A stretch of 64,000 nucleotides of DNA from Myxococcales bacterium. Lineage in GTDB: Bacteria > Myxococcota_A > Polyangia > Polyangiales > Polyangiaceae. The first letter of the stretch is position 1. Each line of letters begins with the position of its first letter. Location of the stretch: the NCBI GenBank assembly GCA_016794345.1, contig JAEUKE010000270.1, positions 62,001 through 126,000 on the forward strand, read 5' to 3'. Below the pieces are notes generated by a model. It saw only the letters and a list, made by a program, of their open reading frames with translations, was not told the DNA's origin and did not search any database. Below, one piece after another: positions 37,944 through 49,770 of the stretch. The translations under genes and the position numbers were made by a program.

Positions 37944-39512
37944 ATGCAGAAAAGCTCCGGTTGGGTGGGTCGTGCGCTGCGGGCTCTGCCCGTCGTCATT
38001 CACGTTTCGGCAGCGGCGCTGTTGGGCATCGGCTCCACGGGGTGCGGCGCGCTCGCGGCGCTCACCAACCCCGAGGCCGCCTGGGCCTTCGACGAGCCCG
38101 CGCCGATGTCGGTCGTCGTTCGCAGGGCCGAGCTCGCGCACGCCACCGCCGAGCAGGTCGAGCGCCTCATGGGCCAGACCCCGGTCGACGACGACTCCGC
38201 CTGGATCCCCGAGACCAGCCTGAAGAAAGACGAAGCGCAGGCGCTCCTCACCTCCGCCGGCACGAACGACACCTACGGAAGCGCCAAGGGCCAGAAGCTC
38301 CGGGTGACCGCCGCGGAGGCCTACGTGACCCGCTTCTCGACGATCTGCTCCAGCGAGGAGCAGCACCCGAGCCTGCTCGCCGCGACGAGCCCCAAGCTGC
38401 AGTCGTCGTACGAGGACATCGCGCGCATCCAGGACGAGATCGGCGCGGTGGAGGCGAAGATCGGAGACGTCGACAAGGCCCTCGACAAGGAGGGCGTCGC
38501 GGACGCCGAGAAAGAGAAGCTCGAGAAGCAGAAGGAGGCGCTCGAGGGCCAGATCGACAAGCTCGAGGAGTCCTACGACCCCAAGGTCGAGGATTTCGTG
38601 AAGCTGGTCCGCGAGGAGGCCGGGAAGCTCGACGAGGCGAAGAAGAAGTCGATCGGCGTCGCGGTCGTGAATCTCCGGCGCGCGGTCGAAGAGGCGAAGA
38701 ATAACAATTCTGTTGCCTTGCTCCGTTACCCGATGGCGGTCGCCGGCCTCACGGGCGAGCTCGAGCCCACCGCCAAGCGTGTCGTCGCGGACGTGATCGA
38801 GGAGAAGGTCGGCAAGCGGCCGGACATGACCAGCCTCAAGCCGGAAGTGAAGCTGGAAGGCACCGACGTGAAGCTGACGCTCAACGGGCTCAGCCCTTCC
38901 GAGCTCGCGAGCCTCAGCCCCGACGAGCTGCTCGAGGAGGCCACGCTGCGGCTCGGCGGGTACGTCGGCCGCGTCATGGTGCTCATCGCTTACGCGGACG
39001 ACACGCAGCGCATCCTCGATTTCCAGTCGAAGGTCCTCGACGCGTGGCTCGAGGGGATGAAGATCGACAGCGCGACCTTCCCGGGAGCCGGGGAGAGCCT
39101 CGCCGATCTCAAGGTGGAGAGCGGACCGGCCGCGGGTCAGCAGGCCAAGAAGCTCGACATCGACAGGTCGAAGCTCGGCCGCTTCATGCCGGGTGGTGTT
39201 CGGACCTCGGGCTGCTCGCGGAAGGTGAAGGCGAAGCCGGCGGAGGAGGAGACCGAGGTCGCAGAGGCCGACGCGGAGGAGAAGGCACCCAAGGGCAAGG
39301 CCGACAAGGGCAAGCCCGCGGCGAGCAAGCCGGCGCCCGCGAAGACCGCCCAGAAGGACAAGAAGGAGCCTGCGAAGGCCTCCAAGCCCGCGAAGTCCTC
39401 GGGGCCGACCGTCCCCGTGAAGTCGGAGGCGCCGGCCAGCGGGCCTGCTACAAACGATCCCGGCCGTTGCGACATCGTGGTGACGACTGCGGAGGGCAGC
39501 ACCTGCATGTGA
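37944..39512 (+). CDS. Coiled-coil lipoprotein with Lys/Ala-rich tail
   Basis: A 522-residue exported protein with an N-terminal hydrophobic signal and lipobox-like LLGIGSTGC. The mature part has an alpha-helical domain, a marked coiled coil (about 165-235; EKIGDVDKALDKEG-type heptads with many Glu/Lys), a second domain (KPEVKLEGTDVKLTLNG) and a highly charged, low-complexity tail rich in Lys, Ala and Pro (about 430-500). No family is recognised. The tail could bind nucleic acid or acidic polymers. The stop overlaps the GTG start of the GIY-YIG protein, so the two are coupled. A short AT-rich patch (AATAACAATTCTG) at 38700 is unusual for this DNA. Confidence 0.75.
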   Translation: MQKSSGWVGRALRALPVVIHVSAAALLGIGSTGCGALAALTNPEAAWAFDEPAPMSVVVRRAELAHATAEQVERLMGQTPVDDDSAWIPETSLKKDEAQALLTSAGTNDTYGSAKGQKLRVTAAEAYVTRFSTICSSEEQHPSLLAATSPKLQSSYEDIARIQDEIGAVEAKIGDVDKALDKEGVADAEKEKLEKQKEALEGQIDKLEESYDPKVEDFVKLVREEAGKLDEAKKKSIGVAVVNLRRAVEEAKNNNSVALLRYPMAVAGLTGELEPTAKRVVADVIEEKVGKRPDMTSLKPEVKLEGTDVKLTLNGLSPSELASLSPDELLEEATLRLGGYVGRVMVLIAYADDTQRILDFQSKVLDAWLEGMKIDSATFPGAGESLADLKVESGPAAGQQAKKLDIDRSKLGRFMPGGVRTSGCSRKVKAKPAEEETEVAEADAEEKAPKGKADKGKPAASKPAPAKTAQKDKKEPAKASKPAKSSGPTVPVKSEAPASGPATNDPGRCDIVVTTAEGSTCM

Positions 39513-41164
39513 GCCCATCGGAGAGCCGAGACGAGCTCTCCGATCTCGCGGTCCTCTCCGTGGACTGCCAGACCACCGGCGCGACGCCCGCGCTGGGCGC
39601 GCTTCTGGAGCTGGGCTGGGCTGTCGTGCCGCCCGAGCCCTCGCGCGCGGCCCTCGCGCGCGCGCACTGGATCGAGGTGCCCCCGCCGCACCGTGTGACG
39701 CGCGTCGTGCGCGAGCTGACGGGCTTCGACGAGAGCTGCCGCGCGGAGGCCATCCCGGTCGAGCTCGCGTGGGCGAAGCTCCGGGGCGATCTGGCGGCGC
39801 ATTTCCCCGGCGTGCTCGTCGTCCCCACGGTCATCCACTTCGCTCGCTTCGAGCTCGCCTTCTTGCGCGACCTGCAGGAGCGTCTCGAGCCCGGGACGGT
39901 CTTCCCGTTCGCGGCCGTCTGTCTGCACGAGATCGCGCGGCGTCTCTTCCCGGATCTGCCGCGGCGGAGCCTCCGCGCGCTCGCGGGGTACCTCGGCCAC
40001 TCGCCCGAGCTCGTGCGCAGGAGCCGAGGTCACGTCGAGGCCACCGCCTTCGCGTGGCGGGCGGTCGTCGGCTTGCTCGCCGAGCGCGGCGTGACCACCT
40101 GGGCCGGCCTACGTGCCTTCCTCGACGAGCGGGCGCCCCCGCGCTCGAGCCGTCGCGGCTTTCCGATCACGGCCGCCGAGCGGCGCGACCTGCCGCTCGG
40201 GCCCGGCGTCTATCGCTTCGTGCGCAAGAACGGGGACGTGCTCTACGTCGGCAAGGCGGCGAGCATCAAGAAGCGCGTCGCCAGCCATTTCGGTGCGGGC
40301 GCCAAGACGACGGAGCGGGCGCTCGAGATGCTCACGCAGGCGCAGCGGATCGTCGTGACCGAGACCGCGACGGCGCTCGAGGCTGCGTTGCTCGAGACCG
40401 ACGAGATCAAGCGCCTCGACCCGCCTTACAACGTGCAGCTGAAGGAGGGCGATCGACGGGCGTGGTTCGCCGCGAAGAGCGGCGAGGCCGGCGGCGAGCC
40501 CTCGGCGGACCGACCGCTCGGCCCGTTCCCGTCTGCCATCGCCGTGCGGGGGCTGGGCGCGCTCATCGGGCTCTTGAGCGGGGCCACGGCCTCCTCGAAG
40601 GTCCGCGCCGCCGCCGTCGGTGTCCCCGAGGCGTTCGCGCCCGAGGAAGCGCCCTTCGCCGAGGCGTGGACCACGCTGGTGGCAGGGCACCTGAGCGTGG
40701 GGCGCACGCCTTGGGGGAGGCTCGTGCGTGGCGCGGCCAGGCTTCGGGGCACGGCGGAGCCCGAGAGCGACGAGACGACCGTCGGGTGGGACCCCGCGCG
40801 CATCACACGCCACCTCGAACGAACGCTGCGCAACGCAGGGCAGCTGGTGCGTCGAGCCAGAATTCTGACAATTTTGTCAGAATCGAAGGTGACGTTCCGG
40901 GAGGTCGGCGCGCCGGCGCCGCGCTCCCTCGTCATCCGCAGGGGTGCGATCGAGGCCGGTCTGGGCTCGGCCGAGGTCATGCCGCTCGCCCGCCTGCCCT
41001 GGCGCGATCGGCAGCGCCTGTTCGACGCCGGCGCCTACGATCGGCTGCGCGTCCTCCTGACCGAGCTGGTGCGCGTCCACGGAGAAGGCGGCGAGGTCAC
41101 GATCGCCGTGCCCGGCGCGGAGCTCACCGGCGAACGCGCCTCGCGCCTGCTCCGGGTCGTGTGA
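39509..41164 (+). CDS. Exonuclease-like/GIY-YIG protein
   Basis: A 551-residue protein with an N-terminal DEDDh-type domain (1-195) and a GIY-YIG nuclease domain (about 230-310; GVYRF, LYVGKAASIKKRV, then a Glu region and PPYN), the layout of the UvrC-like/Cho repair nucleases. The exonuclease motifs are altered: DxET reads DCQT (Asp19, Gln21), the HN..FD motif reads HFARFE, and the third acidic position is lost (GHVEATA). The exonuclease part is therefore probably inactive, while the GIY-YIG part looks intact. The C-terminal 240 residues are unassigned. It starts with GTG overlapping the previous stop. Confidence 0.85.
   Translation: MSPSESRDELSDLAVLSVDCQTTGATPALGALLELGWAVVPPEPSRAALARAHWIEVPPPHRVTRVVRELTGFDESCRAEAIPVELAWAKLRGDLAAHFPGVLVVPTVIHFARFELAFLRDLQERLEPGTVFPFAAVCLHEIARRLFPDLPRRSLRALAGYLGHSPELVRRSRGHVEATAFAWRAVVGLLAERGVTTWAGLRAFLDERAPPRSSRRGFPITAAERRDLPLGPGVYRFVRKNGDVLYVGKAASIKKRVASHFGAGAKTTERALEMLTQAQRIVVTETATALEAALLETDEIKRLDPPYNVQLKEGDRRAWFAAKSGEAGGEPSADRPLGPFPSAIAVRGLGALIGLLSGATASSKVRAAAVGVPEAFAPEEAPFAEAWTTLVAGHLSVGRTPWGRLVRGAARLRGTAEPESDETTVGWDPARITRHLERTLRNAGQLVRRARILTILSESKVTFREVGAPAPRSLVIRRGAIEAGLGSAEVMPLARLPWRDRQRLFDAGAYDRLRVLLTELVRVHGEGGEVTIAVPGAELTGERASRLLRVV
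40862..40883. repeat. 22-bp palindrome inside the GIY-YIG gene
   Basis: ATTCTGACAA-TT-TTGTCAGAAT: 10-bp arms with a 2-bp spacer, clearly AT-richer than its surroundings. It shares TGACA-N4-TGTCA with the palindrome at 11824-11841. Confidence 0.4.
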
Positions 41165-42484: not shown

Positions 42485-43561
42485 TCAGATGTCTTCGTCG
42501 GCGTCCGTGAGGTGCCAGCGGTTCGTGTCGCCGAGCTCCTCGCGGGAGAGCGTGACCCCGGGCGCGACGTCGTAGACGACGGGCCAGGTCGCCTCGCGCG
42601 CGGCGAAGCCGCGCGCGAGGAGGATGGACTCGAAGTCGCGGTGACCCAAGAACCGGATCGACGCGCTCACGACGCCTCGCAGGAGGAGGGCAGGCACGAG
42701 CAGATCGAGCAGGGGGCCGATGTCCTGGGGCATGCCGAAGAGATCGCGGATGCGCGCGAACTCTCCCTCGCGCAGGACGACCGCGTACGCGTGGACGGCA
42801 TCGGCCGACGAGCGGTCGACGAGGGCCGCGATCTCGCAGCGCTCCTCCGGGTGCTCCAGGAAGCGCCACCGGAGAAACCGTGACGAGCGCTCCCCGACCA
42901 GATCGTAGTGGGGGCGCGCTCGCTGCCAGAGATCGTCGAAGCGCGCGTCCGCGCTCGTCAGCCACTCGAGCTTGAGGTGGGTCAGGGCGCGGGCGGCCGG
43001 CGCGAGCATGCCGGCGAAGCGCGCGCCGTCGACGAGCGGCGCGGCGACCTGCGCCAGCACCGGCACGGAGATCCGGCGGCGCATGTACCGCGCATGGCGG
43101 AGCACGCGGGCGTAACGCGTCAGGCTCCCGAGCGTCCGGTACCCGCAGCGCTTCAGCACCGGCGCCGCGGCGACGTTGGGGAAGCCGTAGCTGAACGCGC
43201 CGCGCTCGAGCGCGACCTTGCGCGCGCCGCGGACGAGCGTGAGCGCCGGCATGAGCGACCGGTGCGACGCGTCGACCGCGAGGTCGCCGAGGATGGCGCC
43301 GTGCACCGCTTGGCTGCGGTACGAGAACGGCCGCGGCATGACGCCGATGCAGCCGACGGCTTCGGCGCCCGCGCGCAGCAGGAGCTCCACCGGCGGCTCC
43401 GGCGCGTCGCGACAAGTCCACGCGAACTTGTGGCCGGCCGGCCCGCGCAGCGAGAGGTTCTCCCGCCAGAGCCGGACCAGATCGGGCTCGCTCGCGGCGA
43501 GAGAGGGCGTGTCGAGGCGGTAGCTCGGTAAGGGGGCCGACAAGCAGCCTGGCTCTACCAC
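42485..43561 (-). CDS. GNAT-like acyltransferase, amide cluster
   Basis: A 358-residue protein resembling the N-acyltransferase superfamily (GNAT-type) found with polysaccharide or exosortase loci. An acyl-CoA-binding-like segment (HGAILGDLAVDASHRSLMPA, then GAFSYGFPNVAAAPVLKRCG) supports this. The C-terminal half (about 200-358) may be a second GNAT-like domain. The start is uncertain: the GTG at 43559-43561 overlaps the end of the asparagine synthase gene by 7 bp, and a TTG at 43543 is also possible. As last gene of a five-gene operon it may acylate or transfer the product made by the upstream enzymes. The fold call is moderate. Confidence 0.65.
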   Translation of the reverse strand: MVEPGCLSAPLPSYRLDTPSLAASEPDLVRLWRENLSLRGPAGHKFAWTCRDAPEPPVELLLRAGAEAVGCIGVMPRPFSYRSQAVHGAILGDLAVDASHRSLMPALTLVRGARKVALERGAFSYGFPNVAAAPVLKRCGYRTLGSLTRYARVLRHARYMRRRISVPVLAQVAAPLVDGARFAGMLAPAARALTHLKLEWLTSADARFDDLWQRARPHYDLVGERSSRFLRWRFLEHPEERCEIAALVDRSSADAVHAYAVVLREGEFARIRDLFGMPQDIGPLLDLLVPALLLRGVVSASIRFLGHRDFESILLARGFAAREATWPVVYDVAPGVTLSREELGDTNRWHLTDADEDI

Positions 43562-45573
43562 GTGCGAAGGGCGCTGTCCTCGGTGCGGTCGACGTCGACG
43601 CCGAGGCGATCGCCCGTCCGGGCACCCGTGTCGGGGTCGCGCCCGGCGGCGAGGAGGTCGCGGTGCAGGAGCTGCGTCGACAGGATGGCGCAGATCGCCA
43701 TCTCGTCCGTGTTGCTCATCTTGTCGCCGCCCGTGCGCTTGCATTTGGCGACCAGCGAAGCGACCGCCTGAGGAGACCACAGCCCGGCCGCGGCGATCGC
43801 CTCCGGCGAGGTCACCTCGGCCACCCACTCCGGTGCAGAGGCGGAGAAAAAAGGCCGGGCCACCGGCGCGCGGTAGGGCTGCTTCTGCCGCGACCGGATC
43901 TGGTCCGGGACGAGGTCCGCCGTCGCCCGCTTGAGGATGTGTTTCTCGTCCAGGCCGAAGAGCTTCTGTTCGTCGGCGAGCGCCGGAGCGAGATCCAGGA
44001 CGTCCGGGTCGAGGAAGGGAAAGCGGCCCTCCACCGAGCTCGCCATCAACATGCGATCGCCCTGGGAGGAGAGGAGATAGCCGGAGAGGAGGGTCTCCAT
44101 CTCCAGCCACTGGGCTTTCGCGAGGGGCGAGTACCGCGCGAAGTCGGCGGGCAGCCGGGCCTCGAGCCTCGCTGCGCCGCCGCCGGTCGGCGCGGCCGCC
44201 CGGACCGTCTCGGCCAGCATCATCTGGATGCGGCTCGTCGTCTCCCAACGAGGGCGGTGAGAGTAGAAAGGGTCGTCGGTCGCCGAGAGGTTCCTGCCGA
44301 AGAAGGCCTTGGCCATCTCGACCTGCGCGACCGGGGATCGCGCGAGGTAGGGATAGAGGCGGAGCAGGAGCTGGGGCCGGCACTTGCTCTGGGGCTGCCG
44401 CGCCCAGAACCGACGCACCTTGTCCTCGCGGAACAGGTCGTAGCCCGCGAAGACCTCGTCCGCGCCTTCACCCGTCAACACGACCCGGTATCCGCTCTCG
44501 CGGACCAGACGCGAGAGCACGAGGAGCGGGGCAGGGGCCGTGCGGAGGAGCGGGGCCTCGGCGTGCCACACGACGTCGGGCAGCACCCGGGCGATGTCCG
44601 CGTCCGTGCAGCGGACCGAGGCGTGTTTCGTGCCCAGGTGTTTCGTGGCCGCCTCCTGGAAGGGGGTCTCGTCGAACTCCCGATCGGCGAACTCGACCGA
44701 AAACGTGGACAGCGAGACGTCCCCGCGGCGGGCCACGAGGGCGGCGACGATCGTCGAGTCGAGCCCGCCGGAGAGGTAGCTCCCCACCGGGACGTCGGCG
44801 CGGAGGCGGATCGTGGAAGCGGCCGAGAGGCGCGATCGGACGAGGGCGTCGTCGCCCGCGTCCCGCGCGCGGCGGCTCGTCGGGAACGCCGGCAAGTGAC
44901 GGGACACGACGCGGGGCTCGCGATCGCGGCCGCGCTCGAGGACCGCGACGGCGCCGGGCGGGACCTGGTGGACTCCGGCGAAGGGCGTCGTCGGCGCGAG
45001 CGGGGCCCAGAACGTCAGCGTCTCTTCGAGGCCGGCGGGGGAGAAGGCCCGCGGCACGTCCTTGTCGACGAAGAGCGCCTTCACCTCGCTCGCGAAGCGC
45101 AGGACGCGATCGTGGACGGTGTAAAAGAGCGGGAGGATTCCGGCGCGGTCACGGCAGAAGACGAGGCGGTCTTCGCGTTTGTCGAAGACCACGAAGGCGA
45201 ACTGGCCGTTCAGCCGCTCGAAGAGCGCGATACCGTGCTCCAGGTAGGCGTGCAGCAGCACCTCGGTGTCGCTCTTCGTGCGGAACACGTGCCCACGCGC
45301 CTCGAGGTCGCGCTTGAGCTCGACGTAGTTGAAGATCTCGCCGTTGAAGCAGATAACGACGGAACCGTCATGGCTTGCCATCGGCTGCCAGCCGCCCTCC
45401 GCGTCGATGATCGAGAGGCGCGCGTGCGAGAGGGTCACGCCGCCGTCGCGGTAGACGCCGAAGCCGTCCGGACCGCGGTGGCGGAGCGCCCTCGCCATGG
45501 CGAGCGCGAGGTCCCGGTGACCCGGTCGGCTGTCCTCGCGGTCGAGCGTCACCAAGCCCGCGATGCCACACAT
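43555..45573 (-). CDS. Glutamine-dependent asparagine synthase-type amidotransferase
   Basis: A 672-residue enzyme with a class II glutaminase domain (Cys2 of MCGIAGLV; RHRGPDGFG, SIID, FNGEIFNY) and an ATP-pyrophosphatase synthase domain (SYLSGGLDSTIVAALV, TGEGADEVFAGYD). It transfers ammonia from glutamine to a carboxylate activated as the adenylate; free Asp is only one possible substrate. Related enzymes in exosortase-linked and antibiotic loci act on other acids. Its ATG overlaps the stop of the ligase by one base. Together with an acyl carrier protein and a ligase it likely amidates a carrier-bound or released acid. The C-terminal 70 residues are an extension of unknown role. Confidence 0.88.
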   Translation of the reverse strand: MCGIAGLVTLDREDSRPGHRDLALAMARALRHRGPDGFGVYRDGGVTLSHARLSIIDAEGGWQPMASHDGSVVICFNGEIFNYVELKRDLEARGHVFRTKSDTEVLLHAYLEHGIALFERLNGQFAFVVFDKREDRLVFCRDRAGILPLFYTVHDRVLRFASEVKALFVDKDVPRAFSPAGLEETLTFWAPLAPTTPFAGVHQVPPGAVAVLERGRDREPRVVSRHLPAFPTSRRARDAGDDALVRSRLSAASTIRLRADVPVGSYLSGGLDSTIVAALVARRGDVSLSTFSVEFADREFDETPFQEAATKHLGTKHASVRCTDADIARVLPDVVWHAEAPLLRTAPAPLLVLSRLVRESGYRVVLTGEGADEVFAGYDLFREDKVRRFWARQPQSKCRPQLLLRLYPYLARSPVAQVEMAKAFFGRNLSATDDPFYSHRPRWETTSRIQMMLAETVRAAAPTGGGAARLEARLPADFARYSPLAKAQWLEMETLLSGYLLSSQGDRMLMASSVEGRFPFLDPDVLDLAPALADEQKLFGLDEKHILKRATADLVPDQIRSRQKQPYRAPVARPFFSASAPEWVAEVTSPEAIAAAGLWSPQAVASLVAKCKRTGGDKMSNTDEMAICAILSTQLLHRDLLAAGRDPDTGARTGDRLGVDVDRTEDSALRTW

Positions 45574-47060
45574 CAGAGCAAGTCCCCTTTGCGGACCTTG
45601 CCGCTGGCGGTGCGCGGGAGCTCGGCGATCACCTCGAGCTGCTTCGGGACCGCGACCTCGCCGAGGTGCTCGCGGACGTGGCGCCGCACGTCGTCCGCCG
45701 AGACGCTCGCGCCGTCCGCCAGGACCAGGAACGCCTTCACGGCCGTGCCGAGCGTCGGGTCGGGCACGCCGACGACCGCGACCTCTCGTACGCCTTCGAG
45801 CTCCGCGATGATGCCCTCCACCTCGACCGGGCTGATCTTCTCGCCGCGTGTCTTGATCACGTCGTCTTTCCGGGAGACGAACGTGAGGTAGCCGCGCTCG
45901 TCGAGGCGGAAGAGGTCGTTCGTGTGGAGGACCAGCTCGCCCGGCGTCGGGCCCGGCCTCAGGGTTCGCGCGGTCGCCTCGGGATCCCGGAAGTAGCCGC
46001 GCATCACGTTGCCCCCGCGGATGACCAGCTCGCCGACCTCACCGACCTCGGCGCGTGAGCCGTCCTCTCGCTCGAGCCAGGCTTCCTGGTTGGGCATCGA
46101 GATGCCGACCGAGCCGGCGAGTGACTCCGCCTCTTCGGGCGGCAGATAACAGACCCGCGTGCACTCGGTCTGGCCGTACATCGCGTAGAAGCGCACCTTG
46201 GGGAGGTGCTCGTGGAGCCGCGCCACCTGGGCGGCGGGCAAGGCGTAGGCGGCGTTCGTGAGGTAACGAAGGCTGGTGAGGTCGTACGTCCCGAGCTTCT
46301 TCAAGGAGAGGAGCGACGCGAAGATGGTCGGGACCCCGGCGAAGCCGGTCACCTTCTCCTGCATGAGGCGCTCGACGATCGGAAACGGCATGCCGTAGCC
46401 GCGTTCGAGGACGAGCGTGCCCCCGAACATGTGCGTGACGAGCATCTGGAAGAGGCCATACGTATGCGAGAGCGGCAGCACGCAGAGGATGACGTCCTCC
46501 GGGCCGTGATCGAGGTAGCTCCCGATGGCCAGGGAGCTGTTGCGGAGGTTCGCGTAGGAGAGCATGACGCCCTTCGGCTCGCCCAGGCTCCCGCTGGTCC
46601 AGCAGATCGTCGCGAGGTCCGCGTCGATGGATGCGCGCTCCCCGGGGCCGGCGTCCGTCCTCGCGACCTCCTCCTCGAAGGTGGCTTCGTCGTCCACCAC
46701 GAGCGATGGCTCGGCCAGCGAGAGGAGGCGTGCTCTCCGCTGAGGCCTGAGCGCGCCGCCCACGAGGGAGGGGATCGCGTCGGCGCGCAGCGCGCCGTAG
46801 AAGGCGAGCACACACGCGACCGAGTTCTCGAGAGCGACGAGGACGCGGCTCTGCCGCGTCACGCCGCGCGCGCGCATGTGGCGGGCCGCCCGATCGACGA
46901 GCGAGTCGAGCTCCGCGTATCCGATGCGGCGAGACCCGAAGACGAGCGCGGGGTGGTCCGGCCGCTCGCGGCCGAACACCCGAAGCGCGTTGTCGACGAG
47001 GAACGCGTCGGTGCGCGGATCGCGCGCGACCCGCGGCTGCGCTCGGACCGGGTCAGCCAC
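45573..47060 (-). CDS. AMP-forming acyl ligase
   Basis: A 495-residue adenylate-forming enzyme of the ANL superfamily. It shows the phosphate loop TSGSLGEPKGVMLSY, the YGQTECTRV motif, the hinge FVSRKDDVIKTRGEKISPVE and the C-terminal catalytic Lys in RTASGKVRKGDLL. It activates a carboxylic acid as acyl-AMP and probably loads it onto the acyl carrier protein encoded just before it, whose gene overlaps this one by 8 bp. Layout resembles the exosortase A-associated acyl ligases, though no exosortase gene is in the window. The substrate is unknown. The start is GTG. Confidence 0.9.
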   Translation of the reverse strand: MADPVRAQPRVARDPRTDAFLVDNALRVFGRERPDHPALVFGSRRIGYAELDSLVDRAARHMRARGVTRQSRVLVALENSVACVLAFYGALRADAIPSLVGGALRPQRRARLLSLAEPSLVVDDEATFEEEVARTDAGPGERASIDADLATICWTSGSLGEPKGVMLSYANLRNSSLAIGSYLDHGPEDVILCVLPLSHTYGLFQMLVTHMFGGTLVLERGYGMPFPIVERLMQEKVTGFAGVPTIFASLLSLKKLGTYDLTSLRYLTNAAYALPAAQVARLHEHLPKVRFYAMYGQTECTRVCYLPPEEAESLAGSVGISMPNQEAWLEREDGSRAEVGEVGELVIRGGNVMRGYFRDPEATARTLRPGPTPGELVLHTNDLFRLDERGYLTFVSRKDDVIKTRGEKISPVEVEGIIAELEGVREVAVVGVPDPTLGTAVKAFLVLADGASVSADDVRRHVREHLGEVAVPKQLEVIAELPRTASGKVRKGDLL

Positions 47061-47301
47061 CCTTCTTTCGCGTCACGTAAGCGACAAGCCTCGCGACCGA
47101 GCCGAAGTTGTCGGGGACCATGTCCTCGTCGTCCACCACGACGCCGAGGTCCGACTCGAAGAAGCCGGCGATCTCGAGGACACCCGTGGAGTCCAGGATG
47201 CCTTGATCGAGCAGCGGTACGTCCGACGCGAGATCTTGCGTCATGCCGCGGTAACCGAAGCTCTGAACCAGGAAGGACCGAATCTGTGACTCGTAGCTCA
47301 T
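47053..47301 (-). CDS. Acyl carrier protein
   Basis: An 82-residue acidic carrier protein. The phosphopantetheine attachment serine is Ser38 in ILDSTGVLEI, where the usual DSL reads DST. The length and helical pattern fit a stand-alone ACP. It lies between the NadE-like and the ligase genes, overlapping the latter, and is the obvious carrier for the activated acid. No phosphopantetheinyl transferase gene is in the window. The ATG at 47299-47301 fits the usual start. Confidence 0.9.
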   Translation of the reverse strand: MSYESQIRSFLVQSFGYRGMTQDLASDVPLLDQGILDSTGVLEIAGFFESDLGVVVDDEDMVPDNFGSVARLVAYVTRKKGG

Positions 47302-47318
47302 GGGGTTTTGTTTCTCGC

Positions 47319-48281
47319 CTAGCGGTCGTCGACCAGGAGCGGCGCGGCGTGGAGGTACTCGGCGACGCGGCGCTTGGATGCGATGTCCTTGTAGACGCGC
47401 TCGACCTGCTCGGGCGTGATCTCCACGACCGGCGCGACCTCCGCGGGGGCGATGCCCTTGTCGAACGCGTAGAGGCAGAGGTCCATCTTGGCGTAGGGGA
47501 GGGAGAAGTAGAACTCGTCCTGACCTTGTGGCATCGAGAACGTGTCCGTCGTCGGCGGCCGCTTGCGGATCTCCTCCGGAACACCGAGGTGCTCGGCCAT
47601 GGCGAAGACCTGCGTCTTGAACAGGTGGGCGATGGGCTTGAAGTCCGCCAGGCCGTCGCCGCCTTTCACGAAGAAGCCTTGATCGTACTCGAGGCGGTTG
47701 GGCGTGCCGGCGACCGCGTAGTTGAGGCGGTCCGCGTGGTAGTACTCCATGTTCGTCCGCAGGCGCTGCTTGAAGTTCGTCGCCGCGACGAGCTGGAGGT
47801 AGGGCTTGAGCGGCATCCGCTTCGTCTGCGTACCGCTCGCGGTCGAGACCGTCAGATGCGAGACGTTCAGCCGGTCGGAGTCGAGGATCGAGGGCAGGGT
47901 GATCTTGAAGCGATCGCCTGCCGCGTACTCCGGGAAGACCTGCCGGATTGCCTCGTCCTGGCGGGCGTAGCAGCCCGAGCCCGTGAGCGCGGGCTGGATG
48001 TCCTCCACCACCGTCTGGATGCCGAGCACGTCCGCGAGCGCGCGCCCGAGCCGCAGGGCGTCGGACGACGAGTCCCGCTCGGGCAGGAAGAGGCCGAGCA
48101 CGTGCTCCTTCCCGAGGGCCCGAGCGCAGAGCGCGCCCACGACGGAGCTGTCGATTCCGCCCGACAACCCCACGACCGCCCCACGGCGCCGCAGCGTGCC
48201 GAAGACCTGCTTTCGGATCGCGTCCTCGATGCGCGCCGCTTCGGCGGCGCAGTCGAGCCCCATCACCTCGCGGGAGAACAT
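47319..48281 (-). CDS. nadE: NAD synthase-like amidotransferase
   Basis: A 320-residue ATP-pyrophosphatase of the NadE family, with PP-loop LSGGIDSSVVGA (40-46), GTPNRLEYDQGFFVKGGDG and KPPTTD-like RPPTTDTF motifs. There is no glutaminase domain, so it uses free ammonia. It could make NAD for the cell, but as first gene of an operon with an asparagine synthase-type enzyme, ligase and carrier protein it may serve a biosynthetic amidation instead. Some exopolysaccharide and secondary-metabolite loci carry such NadE relatives. The ATG at 48281 was chosen over a longer in-frame reading. Confidence 0.85.
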   Translation of the reverse strand: MFSREVMGLDCAAEAARIEDAIRKQVFGTLRRRGAVVGLSGGIDSSVVGALCARALGKEHVLGLFLPERDSSSDALRLGRALADVLGIQTVVEDIQPALTGSGCYARQDEAIRQVFPEYAAGDRFKITLPSILDSDRLNVSHLTVSTASGTQTKRMPLKPYLQLVAATNFKQRLRTNMEYYHADRLNYAVAGTPNRLEYDQGFFVKGGDGLADFKPIAHLFKTQVFAMAEHLGVPEEIRKRPPTTDTFSMPQGQDEFYFSLPYAKMDLCLYAFDKGIAPAEVAPVVEITPEQVERVYKDIASKRRVAEYLHAAPLLVDDR

Positions 48282-48399: not shown

Positions 48400-49770
48400 A
48401 TGGAGACGAGGTCCACCCGCAGGAAGTTCGTCTGGGCGCTCGCGGCGGTGGGCGGCACGGCAGCAGCAGCGGCAGCCGCGGCCATGCACCGGAGCATCCT
48501 GGCCAGGCTGTCGCTCTTGACGCGTCTGCCGGAGTTCTCTGCCACCCCGCCGCTGGTCCCCCACGATCCGGTCAAGGACAAGCGGACGCTCTACGTGTCC
48601 CAAGGGAAGGGCCCGTCCGGCAACGTGGACGCAGTCGTCGAGAAGCTCGGGGGCATCGAGCGCCTCGTTGGAGCTGACGACGTCGTCATCATCAAGGTCA
48701 GCGCGCAGTGGTGGAACATCGGCATGACGAACGTCGCGTCCGTCAAGCGGATGATCGAGCTCGTCGTCGGCCGGCCCGGGTTCACGGGGGAGGTCATCGT
48801 CTTCGAGAACACCCACTTCCGGCTCGCCGACGGCTCGGGCCTCTCCCGCGCGTTCACCCACCCGAGCGTGCGCAACGTGGACGTCGAGGGCTGGACGAAG
48901 ATGGGCGATCTGCTCGGCCACTTCGAGAAGGAGAAGGCGCCCGTCTCGTTCGTGGGGCTCGTGGACGCCGGCACGAGCAGCATGGGAGGTGACCACTGGC
49001 ACGACCATGCTCACGAGCACGGCGTGTATGGGGGCGATGGCCGCGGGCCCATCGCGGACGGCGAAGACCGGGACGGCTACCACTGGGACTTCTCCCGCAC
49101 CTTCCGCAAGAAGCGGAGCTGGGTGGACAGCGCCCAGACGCCGCTCACCTGGCCGCGCTTCACCTCGCCGCGCACGGGGGTGGTGGTGGACCTGAAAGAC
49201 GGCCTCTTCGAGCGGAAGGACGGCGCGCTCCATCCGCTGGGGCGCAAGCTCACCTTCGTCAACATGACGACGGCAAACGAGCACGTCTCCACCGGGCTCA
49301 CCTGCGCGTGCAAGAGCGCCATGGGCATCGTCGACATGAGCGCCGGTCGCAACGGGACGGACCCGCGCGTCCGGGACTACCAATCCGTCCACTACTTCGG
49401 TGAGCCGGGCGCGAGCTGGCGCATGGCCGGGCCGCTCGCCCACTTCGCCAAGGAGGTTCGGGCGCCGGATCTCTACCTCGCGTGTGCGGAGTACGTCGGC
49501 CTCGTGCCCGCCGCGGGCTTGCCTGGCGAGGAGCCCGACCTCCGGATCGAGGAGGCCTCGGCGATCCGCGCGGGGACGGTCGTGGCGGGGACCGATCCGG
49601 TCGCGATCGACACCTGGGTGGCGAAGAACCTCCTCCTGCCTCGCGGCGGAAAAAATCGCTCGCGGTACGACGTCGACGATCCCGACTCGGTCCTCTCCCG
49701 GTTCCTCAGGTATTACCGCGAGGTTCACGGGAGCGGCACGCTCGACCCGGCGTTGATCGACGTGGCCTGA
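48400..49770 (+). CDS. Tat-exported DUF362 protein
   Basis: A 456-residue protein with a twin-arginine signal (STRRKFVWALAAVGG plus an Ala-rich hydrophobic stretch). The mature part follows DUF362: VVIIKVSAQWWNIGMTNVAS, PGFTGEVIVFENTHF, and a C-terminal GTVVAGTDPVAIDTWVAK block. Many DUF362 proteins also carry ferredoxin-type iron-sulfur clusters; here the only close Cys pair is TCACKS, so no such cluster is evident. A His-rich stretch (GDHWHDHAHEHG) could bind metal. It is divergent from the amide operon, 118 bases apart. Function of the family is unknown. Confidence 0.85.
   Translation: METRSTRRKFVWALAAVGGTAAAAAAAAMHRSILARLSLLTRLPEFSATPPLVPHDPVKDKRTLYVSQGKGPSGNVDAVVEKLGGIERLVGADDVVIIKVSAQWWNIGMTNVASVKRMIELVVGRPGFTGEVIVFENTHFRLADGSGLSRAFTHPSVRNVDVEGWTKMGDLLGHFEKEKAPVSFVGLVDAGTSSMGGDHWHDHAHEHGVYGGDGRGPIADGEDRDGYHWDFSRTFRKKRSWVDSAQTPLTWPRFTSPRTGVVVDLKDGLFERKDGALHPLGRKLTFVNMTTANEHVSTGLTCACKSAMGIVDMSAGRNGTDPRVRDYQSVHYFGEPGASWRMAGPLAHFAKEVRAPDLYLACAEYVGLVPAAGLPGEEPDLRIEEASAIRAGTVVAGTDPVAIDTWVAKNLLLPRGGKNRSRYDVDDPDSVLSRFLRYYREVHGSGTLDPALIDVA

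What the first reader, a model, noticed from the sequence alone, without database searches (positions are those of the whole stretch)
42485..48281. Five-gene amide-forming cluster
NadE-like ammonia ligase, acyl carrier protein, AMP-forming ligase, glutamine-dependent asparagine synthase-type enzyme and a GNAT-like protein overlap or nearly touch. Two separate ATP-pyrophosphatase amidotransferases with one carrier suggest synthesis of an amidated acyl product, related to exosortase-associated or small natural-product loci but without exosortase, PKS or NRPS genes.
Basis: partly seen in the sequence, partly recalled or inferred. Interest (0 to 1): 0.66.

Follow-up and report, generated by a model that had tools for sequence, protein, structure and literature searches.

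The report
Acyl-amide module for surface polysaccharide
A compact gene set found across many bacterial phyla, one member of which is routinely labelled NAD synthase, most likely builds an amide-bearing acyl group on a small carrier protein and attaches it to a cell-surface polysaccharide, a pathway for which I found no published description.

Summary
The five genes are real, touch or overlap, and are a conserved module. Around 104 NadE-type loci (some genomes sampled twice) from at least eight phyla, the ligase lies within 6 kb in 91, the carrier in 86, AsnB in 75 and all four in 65. The cluster NadE is not the cell's NAD synthase: this genome and ten relatives all carry a separate canonical one. 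The GNAT is a tandem-GNAT acyltransferase. In the Polyangiaceae it occurs only in genomes with the cluster NadE (26 of 26), sometimes unlinked. A sixth gene belongs: the divergent, probably exported DUF362 protein at 48400-49770 (9 of 9 genomes). Relatives point to polysaccharide. One Polyangiaceae genome has the set inside an EPS locus, Manganitrophus has it beside an exosortase, and neighbours elsewhere are dominated by polysaccharide genes. Best model: the ligase loads a dicarboxylate-like acid on the carrier, AsnB and NadE make an amide, and the GNAT transfers the group to a sugar. The substrate, the division of labour between the two amide-formers and the product are inferred. No description was found in open literature.

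The parts
47319..48281 (-). NadE-like ATP-pyrophosphatase amide ligase (PRK00876 subfamily, 320 aa), intact SGGIDS loop, about 52-residue insertion relative to P. horikoshii NAD synthetase
47053..47301 (-). stand-alone acyl carrier protein, 82 aa, DST motif (Ser38) conserved in homologues
45573..47060 (-). AMP-forming acyl/aminoacyl ligase, 495 aa; closest solved structure VinN (3wvn); Arg equivalent to VinN R331 kept, D230 replaced by Thr
43555..45573 (-). class II glutamine amidotransferase of the asparagine synthase type, 672 aa, MCG N-terminus (Cys2) and SGGLDS loop; the only AsnB-type enzyme found in this genome
42485..43561 (-). tandem-GNAT acyltransferase, 358 aa, N-myristoyltransferase-like fold
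48400..49770 (+). DUF362 protein, 456 aa, N-terminus with an RR motif and hydrophobic stretch (probably Tat-exported); sixth gene of the system, divergent, 118 bp from NadE

Best explanation
The genes encode a module that prepares an amide-bearing acyl group on a small carrier protein and attaches it to a building block of a cell-surface polysaccharide. (1) The ligase adenylates a small acid that probably carries a second carboxylate or similar polar end, and loads it on Ser38 of the ACP. (2) AsnB, using glutamine, and the NadE-like enzyme, using free ammonia, adenylate a carboxylate and turn it into a carboxamide, before or after loading. (3) The tandem-GNAT transfers the group from the ACP to an amine or hydroxyl of a sugar precursor. 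(4) The exported DUF362 protein acts later, role unknown. In many relatives a PrmC-like enzyme probably N-methylates the amide. Shown here: gene content, conservation, co-occurrence, folds, intact active-site motifs, polysaccharide context in relatives. Inferred: substrate, order of steps, division of labour between the two amide-formers, acceptor, product.
For: Module conservation: of 104 NadE loci (some genomes present twice), ligase 91, ACP 86, AsnB 75, all four 65, from Myxococcota, Proteobacteria, Nitrospirota, Planctomycetes, Acidobacteria, Bacteroidetes/Ignavibacteria, Armatimonadetes and Desulfobacterota. GNAT: strong matches in 26 of 108 Polyangiaceae genomes, all among the 39 with the cluster NadE (Fisher 1.2e-15; genus-level 2.4e-7). 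GNAT is adjacent to an ACP and the PrmC-like enzyme in G001-G003. DUF362: 9 genomes, all NadE+ and GNAT+, next to GNAT in G033 and G034 and next to NadE in G059 and G060. Polysaccharide context: G059 holds GNAT, MBOAT, DUF362, NadE and ACP, with AsnB and ligase beyond, in one locus with Wza-type export, sugar transferase and polysaccharide deacetylase. In G013, G031, G040 and G073 the GNAT sits beside a GT4 glycosyltransferase in an EPS locus. Manganitrophus carries the quartet beside exosortase W. Pfam tally of 96 neighbours from 26 diverse loci is led by GDP-mannose dehydratase, epimerase, RmlD, Polysacc_synt, glycosyltransferase and polysaccharide deacetylase families. The own genome has an EPS locus of the same type on contig 151. 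Chemistry: Arg equal to VinN R331 invariant in 76 of 76 ligases; PrmC-like enzyme found only with D-type ligases (22 of 39 versus 0 of 37).
Against: In the window itself no polysaccharide gene is adjacent, and the own EPS locus is on another contig. No substrate or product was measured. The window ligase is a variant (D230T, K330T relative to VinN), so its substrate may differ from that of most relatives. Some rhizobial loci lack AsnB nearby and some loci lack a detectable GNAT. Co-occurrence of the EPS genes with NadE is only moderate (sugar transferase 20 of 31, p=1.4e-4). P-values ignore shared ancestry.
Confidence: 0.55

Rival explanations
1. The set makes a soluble small molecule (an amidated acyl or aminoacyl metabolite, osmolyte or signal, comparable in logic to N-acetylglutaminylglutamine amide), released from the ACP by the GNAT onto a small amine.
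For: No polysaccharide gene adjoins the window cluster; AsnB also matches TIGR03104 (N-acetylglutaminylglutamine amidotransferase) below cut-off; Mesorhizobium loci add an adenylation-carrier-thioesterase protein.
Against: Repeated independent placement inside EPS loci and next to an exosortase; a probably exported DUF362 partner.
Confidence: 0.22
2. AsnB and NadE amidate a uronic acid of a nucleotide sugar or polysaccharide (WbpS-like uronamide formation), while ligase, ACP and GNAT add an unrelated acyl group to the same glycan.
For: WbpS-type AsnB enzymes in EPS clusters are reported to make uronamides (PMC3684757); nucleotide-sugar dehydrogenases adjoin several related loci.
Against: NadE stays with ligase and ACP in loci where no AsnB was detected nearby (Rhizobium and Neorhizobium type), tying it to the carrier rather than to AsnB; nucleotide-sugar dehydrogenase is not general.
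Confidence: 0.13
3. The NadE-like protein is a second NAD or NMN synthetase, and its clustering with the other genes is incidental.
For: PF02540 and PRK00876 matches above cut-off; fold matches include Francisella NMN synthetase 3fiu.
Against: Tight clustering with ligase, ACP and AsnB across phyla; a canonical NadE is present in all 11 genomes checked; about 52-residue insertion before the NxxxR helix, where P. horikoshii NadE has 17 residues against 69 here.
Confidence: 0.07

Closest known systems
VinN/VinL-type stand-alone adenylation enzyme and carrier (vicenistatin pathway)
   Same: Stand-alone ligase with a small carrier; VinN (3wvn) is the closest solved structure (E=1.9e-60); Arg331 equivalent invariant, and 39 of 76 related ligases keep D230 and nearly always K330-R331.
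   Different: The window ligase has Thr at D230 and K330; no PKS, no macrolactam, two amide-formers and a tandem GNAT instead.
Exosortase A-associated acyl-CoA ligase (TIGR03098) and amidotransferase (TIGR03108)
   Same: Same superfamilies, and the quartet sits in an exosortase W locus in Manganitrophus.
   Different: Both are well below the curated cut-offs (343 of 592 and 366 of 817 bits); no exosortase in this genome.
NAD synthase PRK00876 (NF002048)
   Same: Above cut-off (492 bits, cut-off 313); PP-loop fold like 2e18 (TM 0.84 by target).
   Different: Not the cell's only NAD synthase, carries an insertion, travels with ligase, ACP and AsnB.
WbpS-type uronamide-forming amidotransferase in O-antigen and EPS loci
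   Same: AsnB-type glutamine amidotransferase with a polysaccharide context.
   Different: WbpS is not described as part of a carrier-protein pathway; similarity of this AsnB to WbpS was not measured here.
Carrier-based acyl decoration of surface polymers (Dlt D-alanylation; V. cholerae O1 perosamine tetronate; from my own knowledge)
   Same: Ligase plus carrier plus transferase decorating an envelope polymer.
   Different: No amide-forming enzymes in those systems; different transferases.

Membership tests
NAD synthase (NadE) | Matches the NAD synthase profile above cut-off with intact SGGIDS PP-loop | tested here: met
NAD synthase (NadE) | Is the enzyme that supplies the cell's NAD (needed because no other exists) | tested here: not met
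   Separate full-length NadE in own genome (638 aa) and in 10 of 10 relatives
NAD synthase (NadE) | Uses deamido-NAD as substrate | not testable with these tools
   needs an enzyme assay; the insertion hints at a changed acid site
Exosortase A-associated ligase and amidotransferase set | Ligase and AsnB reach the curated scores of TIGR03098 and TIGR03108 | tested here: not met
   343.5 of 592 and 366 of 817 bits
Exosortase A-associated ligase and amidotransferase set | Genome encodes an exosortase | tested here: not met
   no PF09721 match
VinN-type adenylation enzyme | Asp at position 230 that binds the amino group | tested here: not met
   Thr in the window; Asp in 39 of 76 relatives
VinN-type adenylation enzyme | Arg at position 331 | tested here: met
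   76 of 76
Asparagine synthase (glutamine-hydrolysing) | Cys2 glutaminase and SGGxDS synthetase motif, profile above cut-off | tested here: met
   aspartate as substrate not testable
N-acetylglutaminylglutamine amide system | Amidotransferase reaches TIGR03104 cut-off | tested here: not met
   311.8 of 570 bits
PKS/NRPS natural-product cluster | Multidomain PKS or NRPS protein in the cluster | tested here: not met
   none among the cluster genes; gene list of the window

The most novel reading that the evidence does not exclude
A previously undescribed, phylum-spanning carrier-protein pathway places carboxamide-bearing (in some lineages N-methylamide-bearing) acyl or aminoacyl groups on exopolysaccharides, using a neofunctionalised NAD synthase together with an asparagine-synthase-like enzyme; hundreds of genomes carry its NadE under the label NAD synthase.
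Probability: 0.35. Interest if true: 0.75.

Novelty: new variant of a known kind. Interest (0 to 1): 0.6.

Why it matters
If right, an enzyme whose family model names it NAD synthase, with at least 572 confirmed relatives in one capped scan, belongs to a surface-polysaccharide modification pathway. It would give biochemical meaning to part of the ligase, carrier and amidotransferase genes seen around exosortase-type EPS loci, and predict a new class of amide-bearing acyl groups on bacterial EPS, relevant to aggregation and biofilm.

Tried and rejected
Cluster NadE as the only NAD synthase: rejected. Chance neighbours: rejected by cross-phylum conservation and phylogenetic profiles. Exosortase in this genome: none. 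PKS or NRPS cluster: none. GNAT without partners: rejected by profile and fold. PrmC-like methyltransferase in the window genome: only the housekeeping-level hit, so amide methylation is not proposed here. Ten literature searches found no description of the NadE-AsnB-ligase-ACP set; only open-licence papers were searchable. My gene caller truncates starts and misses genes in lower-GC contigs, so counts are lower bounds. Louvain clustering split the core families and was corrected by hand.

Full report
Observation. The window is G000:C14:62001-126000 of a 9.66 Mb genome; closely related loci come from Sorangium and I refer to its family as Polyangiaceae. The five reported genes are present on the minus strand with the right families and almost no intergenic space. 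The order of transcription is NadE-like, ACP, ligase, AsnB, GNAT. NadE matches NF002048/PRK00876 at 492 bits (cut-off 313), AsnB matches TIGR01536 at 464 bits (cut-off 267), and the ligase has both AMP-binding domains. Catalytic motifs are intact: the SGGIDS loop in NadE, MCG and SGGLDS in AsnB, and a DST motif with Ser38 in the ACP, conserved in at least 95% of 81 homologues.

The NadE is not the cell's NAD synthase. The same genome has a separate 638-residue glutamine-type NAD synthase on contig 153. Ten genomes from other lineages that carry the cluster NadE all have another canonical NadE as well. Compared with the P. horikoshii enzyme, the cluster NadE has 69 residues instead of 17 between the PP-loop half and the NxxxR helix, an insertion of about 52 residues. 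It is partly conserved and is predicted to contain helix and strand elements, while the rest keeps the NAD synthetase fold (best match 2e18, TM 0.84 by target). A changed acid substrate is likely but not shown.

Conservation. Searching the family found the cluster NadE in 39 of 108 genomes after removing weak matches to canonical NadE. Of 104 usable loci, some being the same genome fetched twice, 91 have the ligase, 86 the ACP, 75 AsnB and 65 all four within 6 kb. Gene order varies (NadE-AsnB-ligase-ACP, AsnB-ACP-ligase-NadE, ACP-ligase-NadE), so the association is not simple inherited synteny.

GNAT and DUF362. The GNAT is weak by profile (PF00583, E=0.001) but is predicted with pLDDT 92 as a tandem GNAT whose closest solved folds are N-myristoyltransferases and the E. 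faecalis protein 2hv2. Homologues lie near NadE in about 20 loci of several phyla. In the Polyangiaceae strong homologues occur in 26 genomes, all among the 39 with the cluster NadE (Fisher 1.2e-15, or 2.4e-7 counting genera). Often they are elsewhere in the genome: in G001-G003 beside a carrier protein and a PrmC-like methyltransferase, and in G013, G031, G040 and G073 beside a GT4 glycosyltransferase inside an EPS locus. The divergent gene 48400-49770 encodes a DUF362 protein with an RR-containing, probably Tat-type, N-terminus; it occurs in 9 genomes, all with NadE and GNAT, directly next to GNAT in G033 and G034 and next to NadE in G059 and G060. I count it as the sixth gene.

Polysaccharide link. 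In G059 the GNAT, an MBOAT O-acyltransferase, DUF362, NadE and ACP, with AsnB and ligase beyond, form one locus with polysaccharide export, chain-length-like, deacetylase, glycosyltransferase and sugar-transferase genes. In Candidatus Manganitrophus the quartet lies between an XrtA-type polysaccharide deacetylase and exosortase W. A Pfam tally of 96 neighbours from 26 diverse loci is led by GDP-mannose dehydratase, epimerase, RmlD, Polysacc_synt, glycosyltransferase and polysaccharide deacetylase families. The window genome has no exosortase and no polysaccharide gene beside the cluster, but contig 151 carries an EPS locus related to those that hold the GNAT in relatives (60% identical sugar transferase, 55% identical 371-residue protein, related chain-length protein and barrel). 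The link for this genome is therefore by analogy, in trans.

Ligase chemistry. The closest solved relative is VinN, which binds 3-methylaspartate using D230, with K330 and R331 as key residues of the neighbouring loop (PMC11253843). Among 76 cluster ligases R331 is invariant; 39 have Asp at 230, nearly all with K330 too, while others have Gly (17), Thr (7, including the window), Ser (7), Cys, Asn or Ala. The invariant Arg suggests a second carboxylate or similar group on the substrate (inference). A PrmC-like methyltransferase, from a family that methylates glutamine side-chain amides, occurs only beside D-type ligases (22 of 39 versus 0 of 37; relatedness not corrected) and as a dedicated paralogue only in genomes with the cluster NadE (12 of 12). 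An amide methyltransferase tracking this module agrees with an amide product. The window genome lacks it.

Mechanism. The ligase loads an acid on the ACP; AsnB (glutamine) and NadE (ammonia) form carboxamide; the tandem GNAT transfers the group to a sugar; DUF362 acts in or beyond the membrane. Which amide-former acts on which carboxylate is unknown. Loci of the Rhizobium type show NadE, ligase, ACP and GNAT without AsnB nearby, so NadE is closer to the core of the pathway than AsnB.

Known systems. It is not a member of the exosortase A ligase and amidotransferase families (scores below cut-off), not an NRPS or PKS cluster, and its ligase lacks the VinN aspartate. It works like carrier-based acyl decoration of surface polymers, with amide formation added. 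WbpS-type AsnB enzymes in EPS loci are described as uronamide-forming (PMC3684757), a rival role for AsnB here. Ten searches of open literature found no description of the set.

Noticed in passing
NF002048 / PRK00876 (window 47319-48281): The public family model names this enzyme NAD(+) synthase, so the cluster NadE is probably misannotated in hundreds of genomes.
   Followed up: partly
L132:1398-3977 and other Mesorhizobium loci: An adenylation-carrier-thioesterase tridomain protein (about 860 aa) directly precedes NadE in many Mesorhizobium loci.
   Followed up: no
G185 (genome of L110, Mesorhizobium ciceri): Two separate cluster-type NadE genes, one on contig C1 and one on C2.
   Followed up: no
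L204 (G178, another family of the order): A GNAT homologue lies close to an AsnB-type gene in a genome outside the Polyangiaceae; whether that genome has the cluster NadE was not checked.
   Followed up: no
G065: Has a strong cluster-type ligase but no detected cluster NadE (genome 72% complete).
   Followed up: no
window 39509-41164 (+): Reads as an exonuclease-like region followed by a GIY-YIG-like nuclease stretch (by eye only).
   Followed up: no
G000:C151:38250-40079: A GlmS-like gene lies in the EPS locus of the window's own genome.
   Followed up: no
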